Shown here: positions 6,746 through 39,480 of the stretch, one piece after another
How the letters are laid out: the number at the start of each line of letters is the position of its first letter
Numbering within the stretch: the first letter of the stretch is position 1
Program-made: the position numbers and the translations under genes
Notes under the pieces: generated by a model
What the model was told of the DNA's origin: nothing
Databases searched by the model: none
Seen by the model: the letters and a program-made list of their open reading frames with translations, nothing else
Assembly: GCF_003387075.1 (NCBI RefSeq)
Contig: NZ_QUMQ01000001.1
Coordinates: forward strand, 5,952,001 to 6,016,000
Length of the DNA: 64,000 nucleotides
Direction: 5' to 3'
Source of the DNA: Asanoa ferruginea
GTDB lineage: Bacteria > Actinomycetota > Actinomycetes > Mycobacteriales > Micromonosporaceae

Positions 6746-6827
6746 AGACCACTCGACCCCCGCCCCCGCCCCCCGGCGCGTCCCGTCCGGTCCACCGTAG
6801 AGCAAGGCAGGTTTCGATCTCGTCCCC

Positions 6828-15062: not shown

Positions 15063-15365
15063 ATGCCAACCAAGATCACGTTGATCGTTGACAATCCCGC
15101 GAACCCGGACGAGTTCGAGAAGGCCTACGCGGAGGTGCGGCAGGCCGCGGACACGCTGCCGAAGGTCCAGCGGGTCGAGTCGGCCAAGGTGTGGCCGAAG
15201 GAGGACGGCTCGCCCACGCCCGCCTACCGGACGCTCGACCTCTATTTCGACAGCTACGAGGACGCTTCGGCCGCGGTGACCACGCCTGCCGACGCAGCCC
15301 TGTTCGGTGGGCTCGTAGGAACGAAGGTGACCTTCACGGGGCTGTTCTCCGATATCGAGCAGTAG
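15063..15365 (+). CDS. EthD-domain protein
   Basis: The 100-residue protein belongs by eye to the EthD dimeric alpha-beta barrel family. It has a first strand MPTKITLIVDNP followed by DEFEKAYAEV, a TLDLYFDSYEDASAAV segment and a C-terminal TKVTFTGLFSDIE. EthD proteins are small ferredoxin-like-fold proteins that act beside oxygenases or in decarboxylation. No oxygenase is adjacent here. ATG 15063 is preceded by GAGGG. Its last 32 bases overlap the end of the convergent oxidoreductase gene. Confidence 0.85.
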   Translation: MPTKITLIVDNPANPDEFEKAYAEVRQAADTLPKVQRVESAKVWPKEDGSPTPAYRTLDLYFDSYEDASAAVTTPADAALFGGLVGTKVTFTGLFSDIEQ

Positions 15366-16461
15366 CGGCCGGCAACTGCGCGAGCCCCGGTCGGTCCCAT
15401 TCCTCGTCGAGCCCGAGGCCGCGCAGGTCGGCGACGACGCCTTCCTGCTCGGCCTCGTAGAGCCGCCAGATCACCCGCAGACCCTGGAGGCTGCCGGGGC
15501 CGTCGGTCAGCGGTGGGGACGAATTGTCGAGGCAGTCGACGAAGTGGACGAGTTCGGCTCCGAGGTGCTTCGAGTCGGCCGACACGGTCATCAGGACCTC
15601 GGCATCGGCGGGGTCGGGGGAGAGCCGGCCGGAGAGCCCACCGCGCGGTGCGTCACCGGGCCACGGCTTGTGCGCGTAGAGCACCCCACCCGTCAGGTCG
15701 GCCTCCAGCATGCCGCCGGCGCAGTGCACGTGGATCGCGTACCCGTGGCGCGTCGCGCGGGCACCCCAGGTGCCGAAGTGGTAGCCGAGCGCGCCGCCCT
15801 CGAACTCGATCGTCGCGTTGCTCGTGCCCTCCCGCTCCATCCACGGCGTGCCGGCGCGGGTGCCCAGGTGGGTGCCGCGCACCGGACGCCCGAGCAGCCA
15901 CAGGAGCAGGTCGACGTAGTGGCAGCCGTGGCTGAAGAACTGCCCGCCACCGAGCCGCGCCGCCGACCGGATCCAGTGCCCTTCGGGGTGCTCGGTGTGC
16001 TGCTCGGTAAAAATCGAAACCTGGAAGACCTCGCCGTAGGCGCGGGCCGCGACCAGCTCACGGACGCGGGCGACAAGCGGATGGAAGCGCATCGGGTACG
16101 CGGTCATCAGGGTCGTCCCGGCCACGGCGGCGGTGTGGATGAGGTCGAGGCACTGCGCTTCGGTCACCGCCATCGGCTTTTCCATGAGCACGTGCTTGCC
16201 GGCGCGCAGGCAGGTGACGCCGATCTCGTGGTGGAGGTCGTGCGGCGTGACGACCAGACAGGCGTCGACGTCGTCGAGCAGCTTGCGGTAGTCGGTGACG
16301 GCCCGCCGGGCGCCCAGCAGGGCGGCGGCCCGGCGCGCCCGCTCCGGGACCACGTCAGCGGTGCCGACGACCTCCACTCGGTCGCCGAGCTCCGCGAAGA
16401 CCTGCCGGTGGGCGTCTTCCATGTCGCCACAGCCGATGACCGCGAGCCGGTGAGGTGCCAT
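15334..16461 (-). CDS. Gfo/Idh/MocA family NAD(P)-dependent oxidoreductase
   Basis: The 375-residue enzyme has an N-terminal Rossmann fold (RLAVIGCGDMEDAH, about 5-20) and the family catalytic EKP motif (KHVLMEKPMAVTEAQ, about 93-107). A C-terminal Gfo/Idh/MocA alpha/beta domain includes FFSHGCHYVDLLLWLLGRPV. These enzymes oxidise sugar or inositol hydroxyls, sometimes on amino-sugar substrates. ATG 16461 has AAAGGAA upstream. It is the third gene of the leftward operon headed by iclR, 11 bases after the deaminase gene, which ties it to the D-amino-acid enzymes of the island. Confidence 0.88.
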   Translation of the reverse strand: MAPHRLAVIGCGDMEDAHRQVFAELGDRVEVVGTADVVPERARRAAALLGARRAVTDYRKLLDDVDACLVVTPHDLHHEIGVTCLRAGKHVLMEKPMAVTEAQCLDLIHTAAVAGTTLMTAYPMRFHPLVARVRELVAARAYGEVFQVSIFTEQHTEHPEGHWIRSAARLGGGQFFSHGCHYVDLLLWLLGRPVRGTHLGTRAGTPWMEREGTSNATIEFEGGALGYHFGTWGARATRHGYAIHVHCAGGMLEADLTGGVLYAHKPWPGDAPRGGLSGRLSPDPADAEVLMTVSADSKHLGAELVHFVDCLDNSSPPLTDGPGSLQGLRVIWRLYEAEQEGVVADLRGLGLDEEWDRPGLAQLPAATARYRRTAP

Positions 16462-16472
16462 GCCGGTTCCTT

Positions 16473-17669
16473 TCAGAAATACGTGTACGCGATCTCGGCG
16501 AAGGTCCCGTCGGGCTCGACGATCGGGATGCCCGTCCACTTGTCGAACGTGGTGCAGGGGTGGGAGATCCCGAACGCGACGAGGTCACCGACCTCGACCG
16601 TCGATCCCGGCGGGAGCCGCAGGTAGGCGTGCTGGTCGTTGACCGCGAACACGGTCGCGTCGAACGGTTCGACGGTGGTGCCGCGGCGCCGCCAGCGGGG
16701 CACCGGCAGGCCGGAGTCGGCCGACGCGTCGCGGCGGCCCAGCCCGGCCAGCGCCAGGCCCGGCTCCGGCGTCGAGAGCACCACTGCCCAGACGAGCAGC
16801 GCCTCGCGTAGGCGGTGTGCGGCGCGGGGATGGTCGCCGAAGGGGGAGAGCTCCGCGTAGGTGCCGGCATCGTGCGTGACGTAGCAACCGCTGCGCAGCA
16901 CGGTGCGGTAGCCGAGCGGCCCGACGGCCGCCGGCACCAGCTCCACGACCCGGTCGAAGTAGGCGCTGCCGCCGACCGTGACGATCGGGTCCGGCCCCGC
17001 CAGCCCCTCGCCGGCCACCGCGCGGGCCAGCGTGACCATCCGGTCGAGGAGGCGGTCGACCTCCTCGACCGCGCTATCCCCGGCGACGATGCCCTCGAAC
17101 GCGGCGATGCCGGCCAACGTCGCCGGCCCCTTCGCCACGGCGCGGGCCAATGCGAGTGCCGCGTCGTCGTCGCGCAGGCCGGTGCGGCCACCCGGCATGC
17201 CCAGCTCGACCAGCACCCGCAGTCGCGGCAGCCGGTCGGCGGCGATGCCGTTCTCCAGCGCGGCCAGTGCGGCGGGGGAGTCGGCGTAGCAGTAGAGTTC
17301 GAGGTCGTCGTGGCTCGCGAGCAGCGTGTCCACGGTGGACAGCGAGCCCGCGTCGACGACCTCGTTGGCCAGCAGCAGCCGGCGGAAGCCGAGGGCGGCG
17401 AGCGTGCGCGCCTGCCAGGCGGTCGCCACCGTCACCGCCCACGCGCCGGCGTCGAGCTGGCGCCGGATGAGCTGCGGCGACATCGTCGTCTTGCCGTGCG
17501 GCGCGAGCAGCACGCCGTTGTCGGCGCAATAGCGGGCCATCGTGGCGATGTTGTGCTCGAGTGCGTCGCGCAGCAACACCGCCGTCGGCAGTGCGACGGT
17601 GCCGTCGAAGACGTCGCCGGGCGCGGACGGGTCGTCGGGCAGCCCTTTGAGGGGTAAGTCAGCGCGCAC
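16473..17669 (-). CDS. D-serine deaminase/D-threonine aldolase-like PLP enzyme (alanine racemase N-terminal fold)
   Basis: This 398-residue protein has the type III PLP fold. The LAPHGKTTM motif (about 52-60) contains the Lys that would bind PLP. Near the C-terminus AFGISHPCTTFDKW carries the His-x-Cys pair that binds zinc in eukaryotic-type D-serine dehydratases (DSD1). The family deaminates or cleaves beta-hydroxy D-amino acids. GTG 17669 overlaps the upstream gene's stop by 11 bases, so it is coupled to the D-aminoacylase. Together they would release a D-amino acid from an N-acyl compound and then degrade it to a keto acid. The exact substrate is not determinable from sequence. Confidence 0.85.
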   Translation of the reverse strand: MRADLPLKGLPDDPSAPGDVFDGTVALPTAVLLRDALEHNIATMARYCADNGVLLAPHGKTTMSPQLIRRQLDAGAWAVTVATAWQARTLAALGFRRLLLANEVVDAGSLSTVDTLLASHDDLELYCYADSPAALAALENGIAADRLPRLRVLVELGMPGGRTGLRDDDAALALARAVAKGPATLAGIAAFEGIVAGDSAVEEVDRLLDRMVTLARAVAGEGLAGPDPIVTVGGSAYFDRVVELVPAAVGPLGYRTVLRSGCYVTHDAGTYAELSPFGDHPRAAHRLREALLVWAVVLSTPEPGLALAGLGRRDASADSGLPVPRWRRRGTTVEPFDATVFAVNDQHAYLRLPPGSTVEVGDLVAFGISHPCTTFDKWTGIPIVEPDGTFAEIAYTYF

Positions 17670-19248
17670 GGCGGAGCACCTTTCCTGGTCGGGCGGGGCC
17701 GAGGACCCCGTCTCGGACGACGATCTGCCCCGCGACGACGGTGAGCGCGACGCCGACCGGTGCCTGTCGCGGCGCCTCGAACGTCGCACGGTCGGCGACC
17801 GTCGCGGGGTCGAATGCGGTCAGGTCGGCGACGAAGCCGGGCCGGATCTCGCCCCGGTCGGTGAGACCGAGCCGGCGTGCGGGGCCCGTCGACATCTTGT
17901 GCACGGCGTCGGTGAGCCCGAGGACGCCGCGGTCGCGGACGTAGCGGCCGAGCACGCGCGGGAACGTGCCGAAGGCGCGCGGATGCGGCTTGTCGGTGGC
18001 GGCCGGGTCGAGCGGCAGTGCGTTGCCGTCGGAGCCCACCAGCGCGAGGGGGTGGGCGAGGAACGCGGTCATGTCGGCCTCGGTGCGGTAGTGGAGCACC
18101 ACCTGGGCGGCGCTGCCCAGCTCGACGCAGAGGTCGAGCAACACCTCCTCGGCCGGCTGGCCGAGGCGGGCCGCGACCTCGGCCAGCGACAGTCCACACA
18201 GGTCGGTGCGCGGGCCGGCCGCGGTGAGCACGATCCGGTCCCAATGCCAGGGGATCCCACCGAAGAAGCCGGGGCGGATGTCGGCGAGCGCGCGCCGCCG
18301 CCAGTCGGGGTCGCCGGCGTGCGCGCGCAGGCCGGCGCTGCCGCCCTCCTGCACCCACTCGGGCAGGTATTGCACCATCGCCGACGAGGAGGCGTCGTAG
18401 GGATAGACGTCGAAGGCGACGTCGAGTCCCTCGTCGCGGGCCGCGTCGAAGCGGGCCAGCGCGGCGTCCGCGCGGCCCCACCAGGCCGGGTCGTTCAAAG
18501 CCAGATGCGAGAACTGCAACCGTCCCCGGGTACGCCGGACGGCGTCGAGCGCCTCGTCGATCGCGTCGAGCTCCCGCCCGGCCGCGGCCCGCGCGTGGGT
18601 CGCGTAGAGCGCGCCGTGCCGGGCGCAGACCGCGACCAGTGCGGCGACCTCGTCGGCGTCGCCGAGCGCCGAGGGGGTGTGGGTCAGGCCGGTCGACATC
18701 CCGTAGGCACCGGCGCGCAGAGCCGCGTCGAGCAGCGACCGCATCCGGTCGAGGTCGCCGTCGCGCAGCGGTCCGTAGGGCTCGGCCATGGCGGCGATGC
18801 GCAGCGCGCTGTGGCCGACCAGCGGCGCGACGTTGACCGATGGCCCGGCGGCGTCGACCGCCGCGGCGTAGCCGTCGAGGTCGGACCAGTCGATCGCGGC
18901 CGGCGGGTCGCCGAGGCGGGCGACCTGGTCGATGAGGGCCGCGCGCCGGTCGGGGTGGACCGGGAACGCCGAGTAGCCGCAGTTGCCGACGACCTCGGTG
19001 GTCACGCCCTGCAGCGCCTTGCTCTCCCCGGCCGGGTCGTGGATCAGGCTGACGTCGGAGTGGGTGTGTATGTCGACGAAGCCGGGGGTGAGCACGAGCC
19101 CGTCGAGGTCGACGGTCTCCCGAGCAGGGCCGGCGTCGGGCCCGACGTGCACGATCCGGTCGGCGCGCACGCCCACGTCTGCCCGTCGCGGCGGCGATCC
19201 GGATCCATCATGGATGGTCGCGCCGGTCAGAACCAGGTCGAGAGCCAA
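17659..19248 (-). CDS. N-acyl-D-amino-acid deacylase (D-aminoacylase), amidohydrolase superfamily
   Basis: The roughly 529-residue enzyme shows metal-binding FVDIHTHSD (after LTPGF), the signature VTTEVVGNCGYS, later FSHLAL and YATHAR segments, and the C-terminal LVGSDGNAL and HKMSTGPARRLGL. This order is that of D-aminoacylases/N-acyl-D-amino-acid deacylases. It would hydrolyse the amide bond of N-acyl-D-amino acids in the cytosol. TTG 19248 is preferred because GGGGAGGG sits about 9 bases upstream and the family begins near LDLVLTGATIHDG; an ATG at 19275 (9 residues longer) is possible but lacks a good ribosome-binding site. It follows iclR and overlaps the deaminase gene. Confidence 0.87.
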   Translation of the reverse strand: MALDLVLTGATIHDGSGSPPRRADVGVRADRIVHVGPDAGPARETVDLDGLVLTPGFVDIHTHSDVSLIHDPAGESKALQGVTTEVVGNCGYSAFPVHPDRRAALIDQVARLGDPPAAIDWSDLDGYAAAVDAAGPSVNVAPLVGHSALRIAAMAEPYGPLRDGDLDRMRSLLDAALRAGAYGMSTGLTHTPSALGDADEVAALVAVCARHGALYATHARAAAGRELDAIDEALDAVRRTRGRLQFSHLALNDPAWWGRADAALARFDAARDEGLDVAFDVYPYDASSSAMVQYLPEWVQEGGSAGLRAHAGDPDWRRRALADIRPGFFGGIPWHWDRIVLTAAGPRTDLCGLSLAEVAARLGQPAEEVLLDLCVELGSAAQVVLHYRTEADMTAFLAHPLALVGSDGNALPLDPAATDKPHPRAFGTFPRVLGRYVRDRGVLGLTDAVHKMSTGPARRLGLTDRGEIRPGFVADLTAFDPATVADRATFEAPRQAPVGVALTVVAGQIVVRDGVLGPARPGKVLRRAR

Positions 19249-19284
19249 TCGATCGTCCCTCCCCAGGGATCGCATCAGCCAGGG

Positions 19285-20073
19285 TTAGCTCAGCACGCTC
19301 CCGAGCTGCACACACACGTCGACCAACCGCCGGCCGACGGCCGCCACCTTCTCCTCGGTCATCCGGTAGGCCGGCGCGGAGATGCTGATCGCCGCGATCG
19401 GCCGGTCGGTGCCGTCGAGGATCGGTGCGGCCACGCAGCGGGAGCCGAGCTCGTTCTCCTCGTCGTCGACCGCGTAGCCGGCGTCGCGGCGCGCGATGTC
19501 GGCGAGCAGGTCCTCGATCGACGTGATGGTCCGGGGCGTGCTGGCCCGCGTTAAGTCCACTTCGGACAGCAGCTCGCGCGCCTCCTTCTCCGGGAGCGCG
19601 CGCAGAATCGCCTTACCCAGCGCCGTGGAGTGCACGTTGTCGCGGAGCGCGATCGTGACCGTGGTGCGCAGGCGCTGCTCACTCTCGATCGCGTCGAGGT
19701 AGACGACCTGGCCGTGGCTGACCACTCCGAGGTTGACCGTCTCGCCGAACTCCTCGTGGAGCTGGTGCATGGACGGCCGGGCGAGCCGGACCAGATCGGT
19801 GGAGTTGCGGGCCGCACGGCTGAGGCCGTAGAGGGCCGGGCCGAGCGAGTATTCGCGGCGGACCTCGTCACGCACGACGTAGCCGCGCTGGTCGAGGGTC
19901 TTGAGGATGCGGTAGGCGGCGGGCTTGGTCACACCGGTCTGCTGGCAGAGGTGCGCCACGGTGCAGGGCGCGTCCGCCGCCAGCGCGTCGAGGATTTCGA
20001 GCGCCTTGACGAGGACGCCGACCTCGTCGGTCCGTCGTTCGTTGGCCACTGGCTGGCTCTTCCCTTGGTCCAC
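19285..20073 (-). CDS. IclR family transcriptional regulator
   Basis: The 262-residue protein has an N-terminal winged HTH (about 18-75; VLVKALEILDALA, CQQTGVTKPAAYRILKTLDQ) and a C-terminal IclR effector domain (about 90-258). The latter has VYLDAIESEQRLR, HSTALGKAILRALP and a final ISISAPAYRM. IclR regulators sense catabolic intermediates. It starts with GTG and lies between the leftward D-amino-acid genes and the long rightward operon, so it is the likely controller of both. A palindrome covering 20075-20095 lies directly at its start. Confidence 0.92.
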   Translation of the reverse strand: MDQGKSQPVANERRTDEVGVLVKALEILDALAADAPCTVAHLCQQTGVTKPAAYRILKTLDQRGYVVRDEVRREYSLGPALYGLSRAARNSTDLVRLARPSMHQLHEEFGETVNLGVVSHGQVVYLDAIESEQRLRTTVTIALRDNVHSTALGKAILRALPEKEARELLSEVDLTRASTPRTITSIEDLLADIARRDAGYAVDDEENELGSRCVAAPILDGTDRPIAAISISAPAYRMTEEKVAAVGRRLVDVCVQLGSVLS

Positions 20074-20074
20074 A

Positions 20075-20095
20075 TACCGGAACTAGATTTCGGTA
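20075..20095. promoter_or_regulatory. Palindrome at the iclR/M81 divergent promoter
   Basis: Arms TACCGGAA (20075-20082) and TTTCGGTA (20088-20095) match at 7 of 8 positions across a 5-base spacer in the 62-base gap between iclR and the rightward operon. It is a candidate operator for the IclR protein, since position and symmetry fit. Confidence 0.6.
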
Positions 20096-20135
20096 AGCGT
20101 ACACACCGTTGGCTTGGAAGGGCCGGGTGGGAAGC

Positions 20136-21635
20136 ATGCGGATCGGTCTCGGCGGCATCTGGCAGGAAACCAACACCTTCGCACCGCAACCAACGAGTCT
20201 GACCGACTTCCAGCGCTACCAGTATTTCGAGGGCCCGGACCTGGTGGCCGGGCTGCGCGGCACCGGCACCGAGCTGGGCGGTGCGATCGCAGCGGCGCAG
20301 GAACGCCGGGTCGAGCCGGTCGGGCTGCTGTTCGGCGCCGCGCTTCCGGCCGGGACCGTCGACCGGGCGGCCTTCGAGACGATGCTGCACGCGTTGGTCG
20401 AGCGGACCCGGGCGGCACCGCCGCTCGACGGGCTGATGCTCTCGCTGCACGGCGCGATGGTCGTCGACGGGCATCCCGACCCGGAGGCCGAACTGGTCGC
20501 CGCGTTGCGCGCGGTCGTCGGCGAGCTGCCGATCGGCGTGAGCCTCGACTACCACGCGAACGTCGGCCCTGCGCTGCCGCGGCTGGCGGACGTGCTGGTC
20601 GGCTACCGCACCTACCCGCACACCGACATGGCCGAGCGCGGCGCCGAGACGATGGAACTGGTGATCCGGATGGCCCGCGGCCGCGACCGGCCACAACGGC
20701 ACGCCGTCAAGCTGCCGCTGCTGACGGTCCCGCCGGCCCAGGAAGACGCGTCGGAGCCGATGACGTCGATCCTCGCGGCCGCCGACGCGATCACCCGGGA
20801 GAGCGGAGTCTGGACGGCGAGCGCGTTGCCGGGCTTCGCCTACGCGGAGAGCGACCGGCTCGGCTTCACCGTGTATGTCGCCGGCGACCGGCACGCCGCC
20901 GACCGGGCCAACGAGCTCGCCGCGCACGTCTGGGACCAGCGCGCCGCGTTCGACGCGCCGCTGGTCAGCCCCGACCGGGCCGTCGCGCTCGCGCGCTCCG
21001 GGCCGGCGCCGACCGTGCTCGTCGACGTGGCCGACAACGTCGGCGGCGGCTCGCCCGGCGACGGCACCGCGCTGCTGCACGCCCTCTCCAGGGCCGGCGC
21101 CCGCGCCGCGGTCGCGGTCCTTTGGGACCCGGCGGCCGTCGACACCGCGCACGCCGCTGACGGCGACCGGCTGACGCTCGACGTCGGCGGCCACAGCGAC
21201 CCCATGATGGGTCCGCCGTTGCGGGCGACCGGGCGGGTCCGCCGCTACGGGCCGGTCACCTACCTGCGCAGCGGCTCCTACATGCGCCGCCAGCGGGTCG
21301 ACATGGGCCGGGTCGTGGTGCTCGAAGCCGACATCGGGCAGATCGTGCTCACCGAGCGCCGGGTGGTGCCGTTCGACGACGACCACCTGCGCGCGGTCGA
21401 CGTGGTCGCCCGCGACGCGCGGGCGATCGTCGCGAAGGGGGCGATCGCGTGGAAGGCCGCGTTCGGGGGCTACGCCGCACAGACCGTCTACGTGCGGACG
21501 CCGGGCTACTGCCCGGCCGGGCTCGACCAACTCGCCTACCGCTCCCGACCGGCGCCGCTCTACCCCCTCGAACGCGGCGCGGAGTGGGAAGCCGCCGTCG
21601 CGGGCCGCCAAATTCCCAGGTCTTCGAACGATTGA
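20136..21635 (+). CDS. M81 family metallopeptidase (MlrC-like)
   Basis: The 499-residue protein begins with RIGLGGIWQETNTFAPQPT, the hallmark start of the M81/DUF1485 family. It has the family zinc-site segments SLHGAM, DYHANVG and TYPHTDM, and the MlrC C-terminal motif DVADNVGGGSPGDGT. MlrC of sphingomonads hydrolyses the linearised tetrapeptide of microcystin; most relatives have unknown substrates and sit in catabolic operons. ATG 20136 was chosen because the conserved domain starts there. It is the first gene of the rightward operon, divergent from iclR. A second, diverged M81 gene lies at 28893. It may cleave an amide or amino-acid-like bond in the imported compound. Confidence 0.88.
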   Translation: MRIGLGGIWQETNTFAPQPTSLTDFQRYQYFEGPDLVAGLRGTGTELGGAIAAAQERRVEPVGLLFGAALPAGTVDRAAFETMLHALVERTRAAPPLDGLMLSLHGAMVVDGHPDPEAELVAALRAVVGELPIGVSLDYHANVGPALPRLADVLVGYRTYPHTDMAERGAETMELVIRMARGRDRPQRHAVKLPLLTVPPAQEDASEPMTSILAAADAITRESGVWTASALPGFAYAESDRLGFTVYVAGDRHAADRANELAAHVWDQRAAFDAPLVSPDRAVALARSGPAPTVLVDVADNVGGGSPGDGTALLHALSRAGARAAVAVLWDPAAVDTAHAADGDRLTLDVGGHSDPMMGPPLRATGRVRRYGPVTYLRSGSYMRRQRVDMGRVVVLEADIGQIVLTERRVVPFDDDHLRAVDVVARDARAIVAKGAIAWKAAFGGYAAQTVYVRTPGYCPAGLDQLAYRSRPAPLYPLERGAEWEAAVAGRQIPRSSND

Positions 21636-21662
21636 CAGCGGCCACCTCACGTTTCTACCGTG

Positions 21663-21697
21663 GTCCGCATAGCAGAATCGGAGTCCGCATAGCGGAC
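21663..21697. promoter_or_regulatory. Two IclR-type operator-like palindromes before the ABC transporter genes
   Basis: A perfect palindrome GTCCGC-ATA-GCGGAC lies at 21683-21697. A degenerate copy, GTCCGC-ATA-GCAGAA, lies 20 bases upstream at 21663-21677. TCCGC...GCGGA symmetry is common for IclR-family sites. Both lie between the M81 stop and the ribosome-binding site AGGAG (21707-21711) of the binding-protein gene, suggesting an internal regulated promoter. Confidence 0.65.
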
Positions 21698-21716
21698 CCG
21701 ACCCATAGGAGTCCCA

Positions 21717-22928: not shown

Positions 22929-22937
22929 GGGGTTCCG

Positions 22938-24821: not shown

Positions 24822-24825
24822 CGCG

Positions 24826-25590: not shown

Positions 25591-25655
25591 GCGGCGGCCC
25601 GTGATCCGGCCCCGCTGCCGCTACCCGTCCCGGCCTTAGCTTTAGGAGCCACCCC

Positions 25656-26926
<1,271 letters not shown>

Positions 26927-26930
<4 letters not shown>

Positions 26931-28896: not shown

Positions 28897-30362
28897 CGCT
28901 GCGGGTCGCGGTGGCGAGCATCATCCAGGAGACCAACACGTTCTCCCCACAACCGTCCGCCATGGACGACTTCACCTCGCAGGGCCTCTGGGTCGGCGCC
29001 GCGGCGGCCGGGCGCAGCGAGGGCACCAACACCGAGATCGCCGGCGCCCTCGCCCGCCTCGCGGAGGAGGGCGTCGAGGGCGTCGCCATCGTGCGCGCGT
29101 GGGCGATGTCGGGCGGCGTGCTCGAGGAAGCCGCGCTCCGGCACCTGCGCGCGCTGCTGGTCGACAACCTCGTCGCCGCCGGCCCCGTCGACGCGCTCGT
29201 GCTGTGCCTGCACGGCGCGCTCACCGCCGCCGGCGAGTTCGACGCCGACGCCCACCTGGTCGAGGCGGCCCGGGCCGCGCTGCCGCCCGGCGTGCCGGTC
29301 GTGGTCACACACGACCTGCACGCCAACGTCACCGCGCGCGTCGTGGCCGCCGCCGACGCGCTGATCGGGTTCCACACCTACCCCCATGTCGACCAGGGCG
29401 ACACGGGCCGGCGCGGCGCGGACCTCGCCCTGCGCCTGCTGCGCGGCGGTGAGCGCATCGGGACCGTGCTCGCGAAGCGGCCCATGCTCGTGCCGGCCGA
29501 GTCGATGGCGATCGCCGACCAGCCGATGCGGCGCTTGCGGGCACTCGCGGACGCGGCGACCGCCGGGCCGATCCTCGACGTGTCGCTGTTCCCGGTCCAG
29601 CCCTGGCTCGACGTACCCGAACTCGGATTCGGTGTGACGGTCACCCACGCGGGCGCCCCAGCCGCGGCGGCCGCACTCGCGGACCGGCTGGTCGGCGAGG
29701 CGTGGGCGGTCCGGGCGGAGTTCGCCGTCGACCCCGTTCCGGTGCCCGACGCGATTGCCGGCATCGAGCCGGGCGGCGGCCCGGTGCTGCTCGTGCAGTC
29801 CGCCGACTCGCCGACCTCCGGCGCGACCGCCGACAGCGCGACGGTCGTGGCGGCACTGCTGGCGAGCCGGCTGCGCAGCCTGGCGACGGTCGTCGACGCG
29901 CCGGCCGTCGCGGCCTGCTTCGCCAGCGGCGCCGGCGGCCGGGTCGTGACCAGCGTCGGCGCGACCCTGGACCCGCGCTGGTCGGCGTCCGCTCGCCTGA
30001 GCGGAGTCGTCACGCGCACCGGTGACAGCCCGGTCGTGCTCACCGGCGACTCGATGACCGGGCAGCCGATCGCGATGGGCCGCTGGGCCACCGTCGATAC
30101 GGGCACCGGCCTGACCGTACTCGTCACCGAGCGGCCGGCACCCACCTTCGACCCGGCCGGCTATCGCCACGTCGGCCTCGAGCCGGCCGACGCCGACGTG
30201 GTCGTCGTGCGCTCCGCGACCATGTACCGCGCGGGTTTCCGGGGGCTCTACCGCCGCGCCGTGCTGCTCGACCTGCCCGGGGCCAGCACCCCCCGTTTCG
30301 ACTACCTCACCTTCGCCCACGCGCCCCGGCCGCTCTATCCCCTCGACGGAGGCGACACATGA
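28893..30362 (+). CDS. Second M81 family (MlrC-like) metallopeptidase
   Basis: The 489-residue protein has the family start RVAVASIIQETNTFSPQPS and the metal-site segments CLHGALTAAG, THDLHANVTA and TYPHVDQGDTG. The C-terminal MlrC motif is altered: where the paralogue at 20136 has DNVGGGSPGDGT, this one has DSPTSGATADSA. The N-terminal metal site therefore looks intact while the C-terminal domain has diverged, pointing to a different substrate rather than a redundant copy. It begins inside the SDR stop (ATGA) and ends inside the next gene's start (ATGA). Confidence 0.86.
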   Translation: MTLRVAVASIIQETNTFSPQPSAMDDFTSQGLWVGAAAAGRSEGTNTEIAGALARLAEEGVEGVAIVRAWAMSGGVLEEAALRHLRALLVDNLVAAGPVDALVLCLHGALTAAGEFDADAHLVEAARAALPPGVPVVVTHDLHANVTARVVAAADALIGFHTYPHVDQGDTGRRGADLALRLLRGGERIGTVLAKRPMLVPAESMAIADQPMRRLRALADAATAGPILDVSLFPVQPWLDVPELGFGVTVTHAGAPAAAAALADRLVGEAWAVRAEFAVDPVPVPDAIAGIEPGGGPVLLVQSADSPTSGATADSATVVAALLASRLRSLATVVDAPAVAACFASGAGGRVVTSVGATLDPRWSASARLSGVVTRTGDSPVVLTGDSMTGQPIAMGRWATVDTGTGLTVLVTERPAPTFDPAGYRHVGLEPADADVVVVRSATMYRAGFRGLYRRAVLLDLPGASTPRFDYLTFAHAPRPLYPLDGGDT

Positions 30363-31369
30363 CCGCGCCGCTGCGGGTTTACGACAACCGTGTCCCGGTC
30401 TACTACGACGGCGGCGCGCGGATCAGCGCGTTCCGCGGCGTTCCGCCGGCACCCGGCCCCGAAGACTGGGTGGCGTCGCTCTCCCGGCTGCCGGCCGCGA
30501 TTCTGCCCGCCGGCTTCCCGCCCGACACCGGCGTCTCGCGGACCGACGAAGGCTCGCTCGCCGACCTGGTCGCGGCCGACCCCGAAGGTTGGCTCGGCCC
30601 GCGACTGGCGGCCGCCTACGGCGGCGACCCGGCCCTGCTCGTCAAGCTCCTCGACGCGGGCGTCCGGCTCCCGGTGCACTGCCACCCGACCCGCGACTTC
30701 GCCCAGCGGCACCTCGGCAGCCTGTTCGGCAAGACCGAGGGCTGGATCGTCGTGGACGCCGCACCCGGCGCGCAGGTCTGGCTCGGCATGCGCGACGCCG
30801 TCGACCGCGGCGATCTGTCGCGCTGGATCGAGGATCAGGACACCGCCGCGATGATCGCCGCGATGAACGCGCTGACGGTCGCGCCGGGCCAGGTGTTCTA
30901 CGTGCCCGCGGGCCTGCCGCACGCGATCGGCCCCGGCGTCTTCGTGGTCGAACTCCAGGAGCCGACCTCGTTCTCGGTGCTCGCCGACTATTCCGCGTTC
31001 GGCGTCGACGCCGACGCGGCCACTCTCGGGCTCGGCTGGGACCTCGCGCTGTCCTGCTTCGACCTTGACGGCTACGCCGACCGCCTGGACGCCCTCATGC
31101 CGGCCGCCCGGTCGCTCGGGCCGGGCCTGCGCAGCTTGTTCGACGCCGACAGCTTCTTTCGGGCCTGGCAGGTGCGCGGTGACGTGACGTTGCCGGTCGC
31201 CAGCTTCGCGGTCGTCGTCGTGACGGGCGGCGCCGGAGCCATCGTTGCCGGAGCCGAGCCGATGCCGATCGCCCGGGGCGACACGCTGGTCGTCCCCGCG
31301 TCGGCCGGCCCGCTGACGTTTACGGGGAACGCCGAGGCGATCGTCTGCCTGCCACCGGAGCTGCCGTGA
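30359..31369 (+). CDS. Class I mannose-6-phosphate isomerase-like cupin
   Basis: This 336-residue protein resembles type I phosphomannose isomerases. It has PVHCHPTRDFAQRHLGSLFG (metal-binding His residues and Gln/Glu), the GKTEGWIVVDA strand and VFYVPAGLPHAIGPGVFVVELQ with the second conserved His. The C-terminal part is a cupin-like jelly roll. These enzymes interconvert aldose and ketose phosphates, but operon members may isomerise free sugars. It follows the second M81 gene with ATGA overlap and precedes the lactonase gene with GTGA overlap. Confidence 0.82.
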   Translation: MTAPLRVYDNRVPVYYDGGARISAFRGVPPAPGPEDWVASLSRLPAAILPAGFPPDTGVSRTDEGSLADLVAADPEGWLGPRLAAAYGGDPALLVKLLDAGVRLPVHCHPTRDFAQRHLGSLFGKTEGWIVVDAAPGAQVWLGMRDAVDRGDLSRWIEDQDTAAMIAAMNALTVAPGQVFYVPAGLPHAIGPGVFVVELQEPTSFSVLADYSAFGVDADAATLGLGWDLALSCFDLDGYADRLDALMPAARSLGPGLRSLFDADSFFRAWQVRGDVTLPVASFAVVVVTGGAGAIVAGAEPMPIARGDTLVVPASAGPLTFTGNAEAIVCLPPELP

Positions 31370-32217
31370 ACGTGCCGTCCCGATCGGTCGCGACCATCGA
31401 GGTCGTCGACGCCGGCTGCGACCTGGCCGAGAGCCCGCTCTGGCTCGACTCGCAGCGGGGCATCCGCTGGGTCGACGCCGGCCGAGGGGACCTGCACGCC
31501 CTGCGCGACGGCCGGCACGAGTCGTGGTCGGTCACCGACGGTCTGGTCTCGGCGGTCGCCGAAGGCGCTGGCGGCGACCTGCTCCTGGCCGTCGGCCGCG
31601 AGCTCTGGCGCGTCCCGGACGGCCCTTTCACGGGTACGGCCACCGTGGTGGCGCAGGTCCCGCCCGGCGCCGTGCTCAACGACGCCAAGGTTGGTCCCGA
31701 CGGGCGGCTCTGGGCCGGCACGGTCGATCGCTCACAGCCGGCAGCGGCGGCGCTCTGGTCTTTTGGGGCCGGCGGTGACGTCCGGCGGCACTGGACCGGG
31801 GTCACGCACGGCAACGGGCTGGCCTGGAACGCGTCGGGCTCGCTGTTCTACTTCGTCGACAGCGGTGCGGGAACGCTGTCCTGCGGCCCCTTCGACCCGT
31901 TCGGGCAACCAACGGTCCTGCTCACGCTGGACCGCGAGGTGGATGGCATTCCCGACGGCCTGGCCGTGGACAGCACGGGCGACCTGTGGCTCGCGGTCTG
32001 GGGCGGGCACTGCGTGCTGCACCTCGACGCGTCCGGCAACCCGATCGACCGGATCGCACTGCCCGAACGCAACGTGACGTCGTGCGCGTTCGTCTCGGCC
32101 GGGCTCGACGTGCTGGCCGTCACCACCGCCGCGGACCCCGGCGGCCCGGGTGGCGCGGTGCACCTGCTCGACGTCGGCCGCACCGGCCTGCCCGGCTACG
32201 CCTTTCCGGAGGGATGA
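31366..32217 (+). CDS. SMP-30/gluconolactonase/LRE family protein
   Basis: The 283-residue six-bladed beta-propeller shows the metal-binding Glu in CDLAESPLWLDSQRGIRWVD, NDAKVGPDGRLWAGT (Asn and Asp ligands), THGNGLAWN and PDGLAVDSTGDLWLAVWGG. These match SMP-30/gluconolactonases, which open sugar lactones with a divalent metal. In the operon it would act on a lactone made by one of the alcohol dehydrogenases or SDRs. GTG start, overlapping the preceding stop. Confidence 0.88.
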   Translation: MNVPSRSVATIEVVDAGCDLAESPLWLDSQRGIRWVDAGRGDLHALRDGRHESWSVTDGLVSAVAEGAGGDLLLAVGRELWRVPDGPFTGTATVVAQVPPGAVLNDAKVGPDGRLWAGTVDRSQPAAAALWSFGAGGDVRRHWTGVTHGNGLAWNASGSLFYFVDSGAGTLSCGPFDPFGQPTVLLTLDREVDGIPDGLAVDSTGDLWLAVWGGHCVLHLDASGNPIDRIALPERNVTSCAFVSAGLDVLAVTTAADPGGPGGAVHLLDVGRTGLPGYAFPEG

Positions 32218-32219
32218 CG

Positions 32220-33203
32220 ATGCATCAGGTGTGGATCACGGGACCCGAGGCCGTCGAGGTCCGCACGGTCGCGACGCCGTCGGCCGGGCCGGGGGAGGTG
32301 CTGGTGCACACGGCGTACGCCGGCATCTGCGGCTCCGATCTGCACACCCTCCATCGTGGACACCCCTGGTTGCCCTATCCGATCGCACCGGGCCACGAGG
32401 CCTCCGGCGTGCTCGACAGCGGCGAGCGGGTCTACCTGCGGCCGGCGATCGCGTGCGGGGTCTGCTTCTACTGCAAGCGCGGCAAGCCCAACCTGTGCGA
32501 CGCCCTGATCGGGGTCGGCTCGCACACGCCGGGTGCCTTCGCCGAGGCGTTCGTCGTGCCGGCCGCCGCGCTCGCGCCGGTGCCCGACGGCGTCTCGCTG
32601 GCGGCGGCCGCGATGATCGAACCGCTCGCGACGGCCGTGCACGCGGTCGCCGCGGCCGGCGACGTGGCCGGCTCCACCGTCGCGGTCCTCGGCGGCGGCT
32701 CGATCGGCCAGTCGGTGCTGCTGGCGGCCCGCGCCGCCGGGGCCGAGCAGGTCGTGGTCACCGATCCGGTGGCGAGCAAGCGCGCGCTGGCCCTATCGCT
32801 CGGCGCGGCGGCCGCGCTGCCGCCCGATGCCGTGCCGGACGCCGTCCGCGCCGCGCTCGACGGCCGTCCGGACGTGGTCTTCGACTGCGTGGCCAGCGCC
32901 GGCTCGCTCGGCTCGGCCATCGACCTGGCGGTCAAGGGCGGCACGGTCGTCGTGGTCGGCGTCGGCCACGGCCCGCTGACGGTCGCGATCGAGACGGTGC
33001 AGGACCAGGAAGTGCGGATCGCGGGCTCGGCGATGTATACGCCGGCCGACTTCGCGCGCGCCGAGTCGCTGATCGCCGGGGGAGTGCCGGTAGAGCGGCT
33101 GATCACGGCCGTCCACCCGCTGTCGGAGGCGGTCGCCGCGCTGCGCGCGGCGACGACCGGCGACGAGGTCAAGATCCACCTGGCCGGCCCGGCCGCTGTC
33201 TGA
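32220..33203 (+). CDS. Zinc-dependent medium-chain alcohol dehydrogenase 1
   Basis: The 327-residue MDR enzyme has catalytic zinc motifs GICGSDLHTLH and GHEASG, the structural zinc Cys4 cluster in CGVCFYCKRGKPNLC and the NAD-binding VLGGGSIGQ. The family includes sorbitol, threonine and sugar dehydrogenases. ATG 32220 was selected because GGAGGG lies 6 bases before it; an ATG at 32214 would sit right on that ribosome-binding site. First of three MDR dehydrogenases in the operon. Confidence 0.88.
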   Translation: MHQVWITGPEAVEVRTVATPSAGPGEVLVHTAYAGICGSDLHTLHRGHPWLPYPIAPGHEASGVLDSGERVYLRPAIACGVCFYCKRGKPNLCDALIGVGSHTPGAFAEAFVVPAAALAPVPDGVSLAAAAMIEPLATAVHAVAAAGDVAGSTVAVLGGGSIGQSVLLAARAAGAEQVVVTDPVASKRALALSLGAAAALPPDAVPDAVRAALDGRPDVVFDCVASAGSLGSAIDLAVKGGTVVVVGVGHGPLTVAIETVQDQEVRIAGSAMYTPADFARAESLIAGGVPVERLITAVHPLSEAVAALRAATTGDEVKIHLAGPAAV

Positions 33204-33214
33204 GAGGAAGCGCG

Positions 33215-34309
33215 ATGCGAGTGAACACCCCCGTGTTGTTCGGGGCCCGGACTCCACATCGGATGGTTGACGTCGATGTCGCCGAGCCGCGCGAGGGCGA
33301 GGTGCGGGTGAAGATGGCGGCCTCCGGCGTGTGCCATAGCTGCCTCTACGCGATCGACGGCGAGCACGCCGCCATCCCGATGCCGATCATCCTGGGCGAC
33401 GAGGGTGCCGGCGTGGTCGAGTCGGTCGGGCCGGGCGTCACCACCGTCGCCGCCGGAGACCACGTCGTCGTGTCGTGGGCACCCGGCTGCGACGCGTGCC
33501 GCACCTGCCACCAGGGCCTGCCCGCGCTCTGCCAGCGTCAACCGCCGCTGGGCCGGATGGCCGACGGCGAGACACGGTTCCACCACGGCGGCCGGGAAGT
33601 GTTCCACTATGGACCGGCCACGAACGCGCCGTTCACCGTCCTCCGCGCACGCGCCGTCGTACCCGTGAACAAGGACATGCCTCTTGATCTTGCCGCGCTG
33701 ATCGGGTGTGCGGCGGCCACCGGGGTGGGTGCGGTCCGCAACACCGCACGGGTACGCACCGGCGACAGCATGGCCGTGGTCGGCTGCGGTGGCGTCGGCA
33801 TCAGCGCGCTGCACGCCGGGTCGCTCGCCGGGGCCTTTCCCATCGTCGCCGTCGACGTCGAGCCGACCAAGTTCGACGCCCTGATCAGGATGGGCGCCAC
33901 TCACTGCGTCGACGCGCGCGAGCCCGACGCGCTCGACCGGATTCGCGACCTGACCGGCGGGGGAGTCGACCACGCGTTCGTGACGACCAGTGCCGCCACG
34001 GCGTTTCCGCTCGCGGTCGGCGTGCTCGCGCCGCGGGGGACCTGCGTGCTGATCGCCGGCTACCCCGACGGCGCCACGGTCACCTTCGACCCCGGGCACC
34101 TGCTCAACGGCGAACGCCGGATCATCGCCTCCAAATATGGCTCCTCGAACCCGCCGGTCGACTTCCCCGACCTCGTCGACCTCTACCTCGCCGGCCGGCT
34201 CGATCTGGCCGCGATGGTCTCGCAGCGGTGGCGTCCGGAGCAGATGGACGCCGCCTACGACGCGCTGCGCTCCGGCACCACCACCCGCGGCCTGATCGTC
34301 TTCGACTGA
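33215..34309 (+). CDS. Zinc-type medium-chain alcohol dehydrogenase 2 (class III ADH-like, altered GHE motif)
   Basis: This 364-residue MDR protein resembles the class III/mycothiol-type alcohol dehydrogenase group: SGVCHSC, ESVGPGVTTVAAGDHVVVSW, the four-Cys segment CDACRTCHQGLPALC and VVGCGGVGISALHAG. The usual catalytic zinc ligand motif GHE is GDE here (ILGDEGAG), so His is replaced by Asp. Asp can still bind zinc, but activity may be altered. GAGAGGAAG precedes ATG 33215; the stop overlaps the next start (TGATG). Confidence 0.85.
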   Translation: MRVNTPVLFGARTPHRMVDVDVAEPREGEVRVKMAASGVCHSCLYAIDGEHAAIPMPIILGDEGAGVVESVGPGVTTVAAGDHVVVSWAPGCDACRTCHQGLPALCQRQPPLGRMADGETRFHHGGREVFHYGPATNAPFTVLRARAVVPVNKDMPLDLAALIGCAAATGVGAVRNTARVRTGDSMAVVGCGGVGISALHAGSLAGAFPIVAVDVEPTKFDALIRMGATHCVDAREPDALDRIRDLTGGGVDHAFVTTSAATAFPLAVGVLAPRGTCVLIAGYPDGATVTFDPGHLLNGERRIIASKYGSSNPPVDFPDLVDLYLAGRLDLAAMVSQRWRPEQMDAAYDALRSGTTTRGLIVFD

Positions 34310-35289
34310 TGCGCGCCGCCCTGGTCACCGCGCCCGGTCGGCTGGCGGTCGAGACCGTCGCCGACCCGTCCCCGGCCGCCGACGGTGTGGTCGTCAAGGT
34401 GCGCTCCTGCGGCATCTGCGGCACCGACCTGCACCTGGTCGACGGCGAGCTGGGCACCGACCGCTTCCCGCTCGTCCCGGGCCACGAGCCGTGGGGCGAG
34501 ATCGTCGCCGTCGGCCGTTCGGCGACCGGGTTCGCCGTCGGCGAGCTGGTCGCCGTCGATCCCTCGCTGCACTGCGGCGCCTGCGACCCCTGCCGACGCG
34601 GCCAGGGCAACATGTGCCAGCGGTGGGGTGCGATCGGCGCCACGCGGCCAGGCGCCTGGGCTGAGTTCACCGCCGTGCCGGTCGCCAACCTGCACCGCCT
34701 CGGCGACGACTTCCCGCTCGACGCGGTGGCGCTGGCCGAGCCGGTGGCGTGCGCGGTGCGCGGCCTGCGCCGGCTCAACCCGCGGGCCGACGAGCCGGCC
34801 GTGATCTTCGGCGCCGGCACGATGGGCCTGGTGCTGGCGATCCTGCTCGACCTCCAGGGCGTCGGGCCGGTCACGGTGGTCGACATCAACCCGGCCCGCC
34901 GCGAACTCGCCGCGCGGTTGACGGGCGCCGCGGTGTGCGGGTCGGCCGAGGGCTTGCGTGCGCGTTGGGTGATCGAGGCGACCGGCAACCCGGCCGCCTT
35001 CGAGGCGGCGCTGGCCTGCGTCGACCGGGCCGGCACGCTGCTCGTCTTCGGCGTCGCAAACCCGCTCGCGACCGCGGCGATCTCGCCCTACCGCGTCTAC
35101 GCCGACGAGCTCACGATCGTCGGCTCGATGGCGATCCTGCACAGCTTCCCGCCGGCGATCGCGACGATCCGCAGGCACGCGGACCGGTTCGCCCCGCTGG
35201 TGACCGACGCCTTCGGGCTCGACGACATCGAGGCGGCGTTGACGCTGGTCCGGTCGGGTAAGACCATCAAGACGCTCATCACACCGTAG
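34309..35289 (+). CDS. Zinc-dependent medium-chain alcohol dehydrogenase 3 (sorbitol/threonine dehydrogenase-like)
   Basis: The 326-residue protein has CGICGTDLH, VPGHEPWGE, structural zinc motif CGACDPCRRGQGNMC, and IFGAGTMGLVLA as the dinucleotide-binding loop. It is closest in pattern to L-threonine/L-iditol dehydrogenases. It overlaps the stop of the previous dehydrogenase by one base. Having three MDR enzymes and three SDRs in one operon suggests several successive oxidations or reductions of one polyhydroxy substrate and its breakdown products. Confidence 0.88.
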   Translation: MRAALVTAPGRLAVETVADPSPAADGVVVKVRSCGICGTDLHLVDGELGTDRFPLVPGHEPWGEIVAVGRSATGFAVGELVAVDPSLHCGACDPCRRGQGNMCQRWGAIGATRPGAWAEFTAVPVANLHRLGDDFPLDAVALAEPVACAVRGLRRLNPRADEPAVIFGAGTMGLVLAILLDLQGVGPVTVVDINPARRELAARLTGAAVCGSAEGLRARWVIEATGNPAAFEAALACVDRAGTLLVFGVANPLATAAISPYRVYADELTIVGSMAILHSFPPAIATIRRHADRFAPLVTDAFGLDDIEAALTLVRSGKTIKTLITP

Positions 35290-35302
35290 GCGGGGGAGCA
35301 CC

Positions 35303-36049
35303 GTGCCGAAACGCATCCTGATCACCGGTGCCCGGCGCGGCATCGGCGCGGCCATCGCGGTGGGCCTGGCCGCGGACGACACCGAACTGCTGCTGCACCA
35401 CCTCGCCGCACCGGACGAGATCGCCGCGGTCGCCGCCCGCTGCCGGGCCGCGGGGGCCAAGGTCGAGGTGCTGGAGGCCGACCTGTCCGACGCGGCCGAC
35501 GTCGTCGCGCTCGGCGAACGGGCGGGAGCGGCCGACATCCTCGTCAACAACGCCGCGCGCGCTTCCGACGTACGCCTGGACGGGCTTTCCCTGCACGAGT
35601 GGCAGGCGACCTTCGCGGTCAACGTGACCGCGCCGATGCTGCTCGCACAGGCTTTCGCGCCGGGCATGCGGGAGCGGGGCTGGGGCCGGATCGTCAACGT
35701 CACGTCGGCGACCGTGCGGCTCGGCGGGCCATCGGGACCGTCGTACGTGTCGAGCAAAGCCGCCCTGGTCGGACTGACCAGGTCGTTGGCGCGGACGTTG
35801 GGTCCCGACGGGATCACCGTCAACGCCGTGTCGCCCGGCGCCATCAAGACCGAGAGTGAGGCCGAACTGGCGGTGACCCGTGGCGAGACCGACGTCGACA
35901 TCGACGCGATCACCGAGGCGGCGCAGGCGATCCCGCGGCGGCTGGTGCCTGACGACCTCGTCGCCGCCGTGCGCTTCCTGATCTCCGCCGGCGCCGGTGG
36001 GATGACCGGCCAGGTCATCGAGGTCGGCGCGGGCCTCGTCTACCGATAG
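35303..36049 (+). CDS. SDR family oxidoreductase
   Basis: The 248-residue classical SDR has TGARRGIGAA (about 8-17), VNNAAR, INVTSATV (Ser) and YVSSK (Tyr-x-x-x-Lys), and a C-terminal GQVIEVGAG. GTG 35303 has GGGGAG upstream. It is the last gene of the rightward catabolic operon; the next gene is convergent, only 11 bases away, with no room for a terminator between them. Confidence 0.9.
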   Translation: MPKRILITGARRGIGAAIAVGLAADDTELLLHHLAAPDEIAAVAARCRAAGAKVEVLEADLSDAADVVALGERAGAADILVNNAARASDVRLDGLSLHEWQATFAVNVTAPMLLAQAFAPGMRERGWGRIVNVTSATVRLGGPSGPSYVSSKAALVGLTRSLARTLGPDGITVNAVSPGAIKTESEAELAVTRGETDVDIDAITEAAQAIPRRLVPDDLVAAVRFLISAGAGGMTGQVIEVGAGLVYR

Positions 36050-39342: not shown

Positions 39343-39480
39343 CCGCCCGGCGGTATCCGGCACCAAAGTTGTCTGTCGGCAATTATCTTCTTCGGACTCG
39401 CATGACCTGCCGCCCCTCGGGTACCGCTCTTCCCATCGGCACCGTTAGCGAGGGTGCTCCACGTCAAAGAAGGGTCCGCG

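What the first reader, a model, noticed from the sequence alone, without database searches (positions are those of the whole stretch)
15334..36049. IclR-controlled catabolic island combining M81/MlrC peptidases, D-amino-acid enzymes, a sugar ABC importer and sugar-acid enzymes
A divergent pair of operons (4 and 14 genes, most junctions overlapping) joins two M81 metallopeptidases, N-acyl-D-amino-acid deacylase, a D-serine-deaminase-like PLP enzyme and an aminotransferase with an RbsB-type lipoprotein, a fused ABC importer, an enolase-superfamily dehydratase, SMP-30 lactonase, a PMI-like cupin and seven dehydrogenases (three SDRs, three MDRs, one Gfo/Idh/MocA). I know of no described pathway with this set. 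It looks built to import and fully degrade one compound having both a polyhydroxy part and an amide-linked (D-)amino-acid-like part. The gene families are established knowledge; the compound is inference.
Basis: partly seen in the sequence, partly recalled or inferred. Interest (0 to 1): 0.8.

Follow-up and report, generated by a model that had tools for sequence, protein, structure and literature searches.

The report
Conserved sugar-amide degradation gene island
A block of 18 bacterial genes that looks built to import a sugar-like compound and break it down, including its amide and amino parts, is kept nearly intact in a few scattered actinomycetes, probably under one on/off switch; the gene families are known, but the compound is not.

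Summary
In detail: profile searches confirm all 18 genes and their families. Seven further copies were found: four Phytohabitans genomes, Paractinoplanes rishiriensis, Acrocarpospora catenulata (another family) and Micromonospora echinofusca (contig ends early). Where the contig allows, 16 core genes keep order and strand at 59-89% protein identity; the Gfo/Idh/MocA and SMP-30 genes are dispensable. The M81 gene E is in 6 of 300 family genomes, own included. A same-genus genome without the island has the genes right of it in order, so the right edge falls after gene R. A 13-bp palindrome, in tandem 20 bp apart, precedes the transporter operon in 8 of 8 copies; a related site lies in the divergent promoter. 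This supports, but does not prove, control of both arms by the IclR protein. The deaminase groups with OngC of the described N-acetylglucosaminate pathway; the deacylase is kin to OngB but forms its own M81-linked clade lacking two substrate-binding residues. Distant relatives carry the amide half and the sugar half apart. Best reading: a mobile catabolic unit for an N-acylated amino sugar (acid) or similar; compound unproved. New variant of a known kind.

The parts
15334..16461 (-). A: Gfo/Idh/MocA dehydrogenase (optional part)
   Evidence: PF01408 1.3e-23; in 5 of 5 complete Phytohabitans/Paractinoplanes copies; not found in the 8.8 kb and 6.4 kb left of B in Acrocarpospora and M. echinofusca
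16473..17669 (-). B: DSD1-type fold-III PLP deaminase, groups with OngC
   Evidence: PF14031 2.2e-17; 3gwq D-serine deaminase E 4.2e-81; tree
17659..19248 (-). C: D-aminoacylase/OngB-like amidohydrolase of an own M81-linked clade (start by homology; the gene caller gave 19176)
   Evidence: PF07969 2.4e-32; metal Cys/His/His and catalytic Asp kept, equivalents of PpOngB Lys254 and Glu226 replaced
19285..20049 (-). D: IclR-family regulator
   Evidence: PF01614 7.1e-41, PF09339 5.9e-14
20069..20081 (.). weak operator-like site (2 mismatches) in the divergent promoter; an exact palindrome aligns here in 5 of 8 copies
20136..21635 (+). E: M81/MlrC-type metallohydrolase a
   Evidence: PF07364 3.4e-89, PF07171 2.3e-42; E11, D138, H140, H162, aligned with the MlrC zinc ligands, are invariant in 6 of 6 aligned copies
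21632..21661 (+). promoter-like TTGACA, 18 bp, TACCGT before the transporter operon (read by eye)
   Evidence: block conserved in the alignment; position
21664..21696 (+). tandem operator-like palindrome TCCGCNNNGCGGA, two sites 20 bp apart
   Evidence: 8 of 8 copies; none in 60 first-order resamples of the 64-kb window; 14 of 14 exact single matches in the 8 copies lie in the D-E or E-F gaps
21717..22928 (+). F: RbsB-type sugar-binding lipoprotein with RR-type signal peptide
   Evidence: PF13407 3.5e-34; start from orthologues; signal type recalled
22938..24821 (+). G: fused CUT2-type permease + single ATPase
   Evidence: PF02653 residues 42-305 and PF00005 378-533
24826..25590 (+). H: SDR, gluconate-5-dehydrogenase-like
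   Evidence: PF00106 3.1e-46; NF006070 below cut-off
25656..26930 (+). I: class III aminotransferase, glutamate-1-semialdehyde-aminomutase type
   Evidence: PF00202 1.1e-55
26927..28135 (+). J: enolase-superfamily acid-sugar dehydratase, glucarate-dehydratase-like
   Evidence: PF13378 2e-54; shared KxK, Asp/Glu/Asn and Asp-His positions with the structures aligned; roles of the residues recalled
28135..28896 (+). K: SDR, FabG-like
   Evidence: PF13561 9e-59
28893..30362 (+). L: M81/MlrC-type metallohydrolase b
   Evidence: PF07364 3e-76; E13, D141, H143, H165 invariant in 7 of 7 aligned copies
30359..31369 (+). M: type I phosphomannose-isomerase-like cupin
   Evidence: PF21621 1.9e-7; 1qwr E 1.1e-15
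31366..32217 (+). N: SMP-30/gluconolactonase (optional part)
   Evidence: PF08450 2.2e-46; in Acrocarpospora (53%), not found in 5 of 5 complete Phytohabitans/Paractinoplanes copies
32214..33203 (+). O: MDR dehydrogenase 1
   Evidence: PF00107 7.8e-25
33263..34309 (+). P: MDR dehydrogenase 2, class-III/NDMA-dependent type
   Evidence: TIGR03989 1.2e-81, below cut-off
34309..35289 (+). Q: MDR dehydrogenase 3
   Evidence: PF08240 7.2e-28
35303..36049 (+). R: SDR 3; last gene of the island, next gene (36061-37245) is resident DNA
   Evidence: PF00106 1.7e-46; right edge by comparison with G001

Best explanation
The region is one catabolic unit that comes and goes as a block. Shown: an operator-like palindrome, conserved in all 8 copies, stands just downstream of a promoter-like block before the transporter operon, and a related site lies in the divergent promoter. 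Inferred: the IclR protein binds these sites and switches both arms. Shown by family: an RbsB-type lipoprotein and fused CUT2-type importer suited to a sugar-like ligand; two M81 enzymes with zinc ligands and a deacylase able to cut amides; an OngC-type PLP enzyme able to deaminate a beta-hydroxy D-amino acid; a class III aminotransferase; up to seven NAD(P)-type dehydrogenases; a PMI-like isomerase; an acid-sugar dehydratase; an optional lactonase. Inferred: the substrate is an N-acylated amino sugar, its aldonic or uronic acid, or a similar polyhydroxy amide. It is imported, oxidised, freed of acyl group(s), deaminated to a 2-keto-3-deoxy-type acid, and passed to central enzymes encoded elsewhere. 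The unit works like an enlarged relative of the ong (GlcNAc1A) module joined to a sugar-import module.
For: Colinear copies of the 16 core genes; 6 of 300 family genomes, own included, and none of the five other genomes of the genus; resident genes right of the island in order in island-free G001. Tandem palindromes in 8 of 8 copies, none in 60 resamples. B splits with 17 others plus L092 and L102 from three distant DSD1-type rows at 100/100; 8 of its 10 rows outside islands and M81 clusters come from loci with a KDG kinase match. C in a 100/99 clade whose 10 members, 8 islands plus L077 and L078, all lie beside an M81 gene and a B gene. IclR + deaminase + deacylase + KDG kinase + gluconate permease in five other actinobacterial loci. 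J aligned with glucarate-dehydratase-type proteins. L077 has IlvD/EDD and UxuA dehydratases and FAH near the same amide genes. L127 has F, G, H, M, Q homologues at 48-65% without the amide genes in 19.9 kb.
Against: No curated cut-off is met in the rows shown for the island proteins (best 25 each). C lacks two residues that bind GlcNAc1A in PpOngB, so its substrate need not be a 2-acylamino aldonic acid; but 9 of the 24 other rows in that alignment lack the Lys too, among them all five IclR/KdgK loci, so the residue is not decisive either way. No aldolase or kinase closes the route. The window's own divergent-promoter site has 2 mismatches, and a single exact palindrome in 64 kb is not unusual (0.59 expected). 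Binding-protein model too poor to use (mean pLDDT 50.4). No expression, binding or growth data.
Confidence: 0.5

Rival explanations
1. It is simply an actinobacterial version of the oxidative GlcNAc (GlcNAc1A) pathway: C = OngB, B = OngC.
For: C matches PpOngB structures at E 4.2e-68; B groups with ong-cluster deaminases; the pair is IclR-linked in five other actinobacterial loci.
Against: C is in another clade and lacks the Lys254 and Glu226 equivalents in 8 of 8 copies. KdgK, RidA, GH20, SSS symporter and KDPG aldolase are not among the 18 genes. Thirteen other enzymes would be superfluous.
Confidence: 0.12
2. It degrades an aminocyclitol or aminoglycoside-like compound: dehydrogenases and aminotransferase open the ring, amide hydrolases remove acyl or aminoacyl side chains.
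For: A matches the inositol dehydrogenase model IolG, and O, P and Q the inosose dehydrogenase model IolM, weakly; the aminotransferase is closest to 4zm3/4zm4, a natural-product aminotransferase by recall only (one search found no paper).
Against: All such matches are far below the curated cut-offs; no family of the other inositol enzymes was reported for the 18 genes.
Confidence: 0.15
3. It is a peptide or toxin-degrading cluster of the microcystin (mlr) kind, with two MlrC-like enzymes.
For: E matches MlrC (7ylq E 1.3e-47); both M81 proteins keep its zinc ligands.
Against: MlrC model scores are 159.6 and 152.2 bits against a cut-off of 999; no mlrA- or mlrB-type family among the 18 genes; the importer is sugar-type; MlrC's proposed base E70 is not matched by Glu in E (printed alignment).
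Confidence: 0.06
4. It makes rather than degrades a sugar-derived natural product.
For: An aminotransferase, many dehydrogenases and a dehydratase can also build amino sugars.
Against: Importer with binding protein, IclR regulator, three amide-type hydrolases; no synthetase, glycosyltransferase, carrier protein or exporter family among the 18 genes.
Confidence: 0.07
5. Two unrelated catabolic operons that happen to be neighbours.
For: Distant relatives hold the two halves apart.
Against: Both arms adjacent in 8 of 8 copies, amide and sugar genes interleaved inside one 14-gene arm, palindromes at both promoters.
Confidence: 0.1

Closest known systems
ong cluster / GlcNAc1A oxidative chitin pathway (PMC9537276, PMC12017989)
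   Same: D-aminoacylase-fold deacylase near a DSD1-type deaminase under a dedicated regulator; deacetylation then deamination without phosphorylation
   Different: IclR not RpiR, ABC importer not SSS, no KdgK, RidA or GH20; own deacylase clade lacking two substrate residues; M81, enolase-type dehydratase, aminotransferase, cupin and seven dehydrogenases added
Distant actinobacterial amide-half clusters L077 and L078
   Same: C (50-51%), B (43-44%), M81 (31-35%), a K-type SDR and SMP-30 together
   Different: No F/G-type fused importer found (an SBP_bac_5 fragment in L077); FAH in both; L077 also has IlvD/EDD and UxuA dehydratases and an FCD/GntR regulator
Sugar-import half in L127 (genome of 1.5 Mb)
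   Same: F 59%, G 64%, H 65%, M 49%, Q 48%
   Different: No deacylase, deaminase, M81, aminotransferase or enolase-type match in the 19.9 kb fetched
MlrC microcystinase (7ylq)
   Same: M81 family and zinc ligands
   Different: Not in an mlr context; far below the MlrC model cut-off
Glucarate dehydratase group of the enolase superfamily
   Same: Catalytic positions
   Different: Equivalog cut-off not met (145.4 of 828.7 bits)

Membership tests
ong (GlcNAc1A) pathway | Deacylase with subtype V metal site Cys/His/His and catalytic Asp | tested here: met
   C66, H194, H224, D383 (numbered from the 19176 start) in 8 of 8 copies
ong (GlcNAc1A) pathway | GlcNAc1A-binding Lys254 and Glu226 of PpOngB | tested here: not met
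   Ala and Ala/Ser/Thr in the 8 copies. PpOngB itself was not in the alignment; the deacylases of two Pseudoalteromonas loci, one an annotated ong cluster, show Lys and Glu there
ong (GlcNAc1A) pathway | OngC-type PLP deaminase | tested here: met
   20 rows against 3 at 100/100, unrooted split; activity not tested
ong (GlcNAc1A) pathway | KdgK, RidA, GH20 and SSS symporter in the cluster | tested here: not met
   None among the 18 genes
mlr microcystin degradation | M81 zinc site E, D, H, H | tested here: met
mlr microcystin degradation | MlrC curated score; mlrA and mlrB neighbours | tested here: not met
   159.6 and 152.2 of 999 bits; no such families among the 18 genes
beta-hydroxyaspartate (bhc) cycle | BhcC and BhcR curated scores | tested here: not met
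   87.7 of 690 and 197.8 of 350 bits
acid-sugar dehydratase (glucarate dehydratase group) | Catalytic KxK, Asp/Glu/Asn metal positions, Asp-His pair | tested here: met
   alignments; assignment of roles recalled
acid-sugar dehydratase (glucarate dehydratase group) | Dehydration of an acid sugar | not testable with these tools
   needs enzyme assay
IclR-controlled regulon | Conserved palindrome at the regulated promoters | tested here: met
   exact at the divergent promoter in 5 of 8 copies only
IclR-controlled regulon | Binding of D to the palindrome and co-regulation | not testable with these tools
   needs gel shift and RNA-seq

The most novel reading that the evidence does not exclude
A new type of amino-sugar(-acid) catabolism in which MlrC-type M81 enzymes, known mainly from microcystin breakdown, act as amidases on sugar-acid amides, paired with a deacylase clade of new specificity and an OngC-type deaminase: a natural role for M81 enzymes outside toxin degradation.
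Probability: 0.35. Interest if true: 0.65.

Novelty: new variant of a known kind. Interest (0 to 1): 0.45.

Why it matters
Conserved synteny, a candidate operator and a defined importer make the compound findable: one binding screen with F could name it. That would give a physiological role to M81 enzymes outside microcystin breakdown and could extend the ong-type chemistry, which treats an amino sugar as a D-amino acid, to soil and plant actinomycetes.

Tried and rejected
Bhc cycle (best model hits for B and D, far below cut-offs): rejected. Microcystin pathway: rejected. Plasmid searches with E, C, B and J: every matching record under 60% identity, so no close copy of the island there. M81 neighbourhoods on three plasmids: M81 beside ABC transporter genes, without the island set. 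L035's phylum (record titled Bryobacterales): best C-type hit 404 bits among 199 genomes, against 568-601 for L078/L077; neighbourhoods not examined. Orders of G633 and G546: only the centre genome itself at E<=1e-125, of 148 and 36. F profile: only the window's genome of 396 phylum genomes at E<=1e-60, 5 of 394 class genomes at E<=1e-80; of the four besides the window's, none has the amide genes in the stretch fetched, and L128 has F and G only, L129 and L130 F only. Flanks: a first comparison with called genes suffered from wrong-strand calls in G127 and G135, so it was repeated on six-frame pieces and by tblastn. Against a simple 'unrelated flanks' claim, G135 has the window's right-hand trio (39454-41020) at 54-67% on the other side of its island, plus a sigma-factor match. 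The sigma family has 11 members in G135, and the first trio gene has a second match there, so chance, a hot spot or an inversion cannot be told apart. Structure of F: mean pLDDT 50.4, not searched. The M paralogue of the window's genome lies among ordinary sugar genes. Haloarchaeal GlcNAc clusters with IclR (PMC12343721, passages) use other enzymes. Paper searches listed no pathway with this gene set; only listings were seen for these, and only open-licence papers are held. Row dropped: L092's deacylase (1045-aa reading) before the tree. In one search only the 5 best first-look candidates per genome were scored (3).
Full report
OBSERVATION. A codon-usage gene call on the window gave 18 genes between 15334 and 36049: four leftward (D, C, B, A) and fourteen rightward (E-R). 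In the rows shown (best 25 per protein) no NCBIfam cut-off is met, so family membership is firm but specific function is not. Eight of 16 junctions overlap.

DISTRIBUTION. The window lies in a 9.07-Mb single-contig genome whose only two M81 genes are the island's. Gene E occurs at E<=1e-100 in 6 of 300 sampled family genomes, own included, in 3 of 44 genera, and in none of the five other genomes of the window's genus. A scan of the GTDB contig set gave 32 pattern matches and 12 relatives: six close (72-77%) and six distant (30-35%). Five complete copies (four Phytohabitans, one Paractinoplanes) hold 17 of the 18 genes in the same order and strand; only SMP-30 was not found. Acrocarpospora, from another family, holds 17 with SMP-30 at 53%, and no A gene in the 8.8 kb left of B; Micromonospora echinofusca holds B-H up to its contig end, without A in the 6.4 kb left of B. 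The core is therefore B-M plus O-R.

EDGES. In G001, a same-genus genome without the island, the genes right of it (36061-37245 at 90%, 37419-38423 at 79%, the trio 39454-41020 at 71-78%) stand in the same order. So the island joins resident DNA between R and the gene at 36061, which is not part of it; no match to that gene was seen outside the island genes in the five complete copies. The window's left-hand neighbours were not found in the 38 kb fetched from G001, so the left edge is open. Flanks of the other copies (about 11-12 kb left, 3-5 kb right) share little: G135 has the window's trio on the opposite side of its island, and a sigma-factor match from a family with 11 members there. Presence and absence as a block, with horizontal spread, is the simplest reading; a transposase or integrase was not looked for in every copy, so the vehicle is unknown.

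REGULATION. Alignment of the gaps showed a conserved block with TTGACA and two copies of a palindrome in the E-F gap (six copies aligned). The core TCCGCNNNGCGGA occurs exactly 14 times in the eight copies (about 282 kb scanned) and all 14 lie in the D-E or E-F gaps. In the window alone there is one exact match against 0.59 expected, so conservation and position carry the weight. Tandem pairs 20 bp apart (one exact, one with up to 2 mismatches) stand in the E-F gap of 8 of 8 copies and in none of 60 first-order resamples of the window. In the D-E gap five of eight copies have an exact site; the window and Acrocarpospora have sites with 2 mismatches, M. echinofusca with 1-2. The palindrome was not found in L077 and only inside L078 at an unrelated place. 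That the IclR protein D binds these sites is inference.

THE AMIDE HALF. B is closest among solved structures to 3gwq, D-serine deaminase, E 4.2e-81, against 2.9e-21 for the next. In a 23-row tree it stands among 20 rows split at 100/100 from three distant ones (L081, L084, L093; 26-28% identity to B). Of the 10 rows that are neither islands nor M81 clusters, 8 come from loci with a KDG kinase match, including an annotated Pseudoalteromonas ong cluster; L092 and L102 do not. The finer order inside has moderate support (80-92). OngC deaminates glucosaminate, D-serine and D-threonine (PMC9537276, section 13 read, other passages). C matches PpOngB and D-aminoacylases. It keeps the metal site and catalytic Asp, and the Tyr and Arg positions of the carboxylate site, but the Lys equivalent to PpOngB Lys254 is Ala and the Glu226 equivalent is Ala/Ser/Thr in 8 of 8 copies (residue roles from PMC12017989, parts 1-3 of 8 read). 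The two distant relatives with M81 neighbours share the Lys loss, and the ten form one clade (100/99). But 9 of the 24 other rows also lack that Lys, among them the five IclR/KdgK/gluconate-permease loci (Thr), so its loss neither proves a new substrate nor excludes an amino-sugar acid. Both M81 proteins keep residues aligned with the zinc ligands described for MlrC (passages of PMC9982164).

THE SUGAR HALF. F/G is a CUT2-type importer with one permease and one ATPase fused. J aligns through the catalytic positions with glucarate-dehydratase-type proteins. M is a distant relative of type I PMI. The nearest solved relatives of F are ribose-type binding proteins at only E 4.8e-21 to 4.1e-17, so the ligand cannot be read off.

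MODULARITY. In 396 phylum genomes the C profile at E<=1e-90 hit 30, own included. The two best after the window's own, G633 (L077) and G546 (L078), carry C, B, M81, a K-type SDR and SMP-30, plus FAH hydrolases; L077 also has a second M81, IlvD/EDD and UxuA dehydratases. Of the 14 weaker places fetched with them, none showed an M81 match. In 394 class genomes the F profile at E<=1e-80 hit 5; the best after the window, G1260 (L127), carries F, G, H, M and Q homologues without the amide genes in 19.9 kb. So the two halves exist apart, and the island looks like their merger, though the direction (merger or split) was not tested.

VERDICT. A real, conserved, probably co-regulated catabolic island. 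The substrate is most likely an N-acylated amino sugar, its acid, or a similar polyhydroxy amide; this step is inference at about even odds. All enzyme families are known; the combination with M81 enzymes was not seen in the paper searches listed under Tried and rejected. New variant of a known kind; interest moderate.

Noticed in passing
L087, L089, L090, L097:10144-11745, L103: Five actinobacterial loci with IclR, KDG kinase, OngC-type deaminase, deacylase and gluconate permease look like a GlcNAc1A-type pathway; their deacylases have Asp aligned with the metal-binding Cys and Thr with the carboxylate-binding Lys.
   Followed up: partly
L131 (window's genome, 5660500-5677500): A paralogue of cupin M lies near PfkB and FGGY kinases, a DeoC/LacD-family aldolase and CUT2-type importer genes; the five genomes of the genus each have one cupin match at 44-45% to M.
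   Followed up: partly
L044 (Phytohabitans flavus copy), 5822-6864: The P dehydrogenase homologue matches in two overlapping pieces, as if frame-shifted.
   Followed up: no
window 39454-41020; G135:C3 near 445000: A holin-X/DUF3618 gene trio stands 3.4 kb right of the island in the window and about 5 kb from the opposite end of the island in G135; it may mark a hot spot or an inversion.
   Followed up: partly
window 48477-48571: ARAGORN calls a 95-base tRNA-Ala (cgc) inside a called coding gene 48193-48600; probably spurious.
   Followed up: no
L127:11380-15735: Next to the sugar-import half in G1260: amino-acid permease, glutamine-synthetase-like and aldehyde dehydrogenase genes resembling polyamine breakdown.
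   Followed up: no
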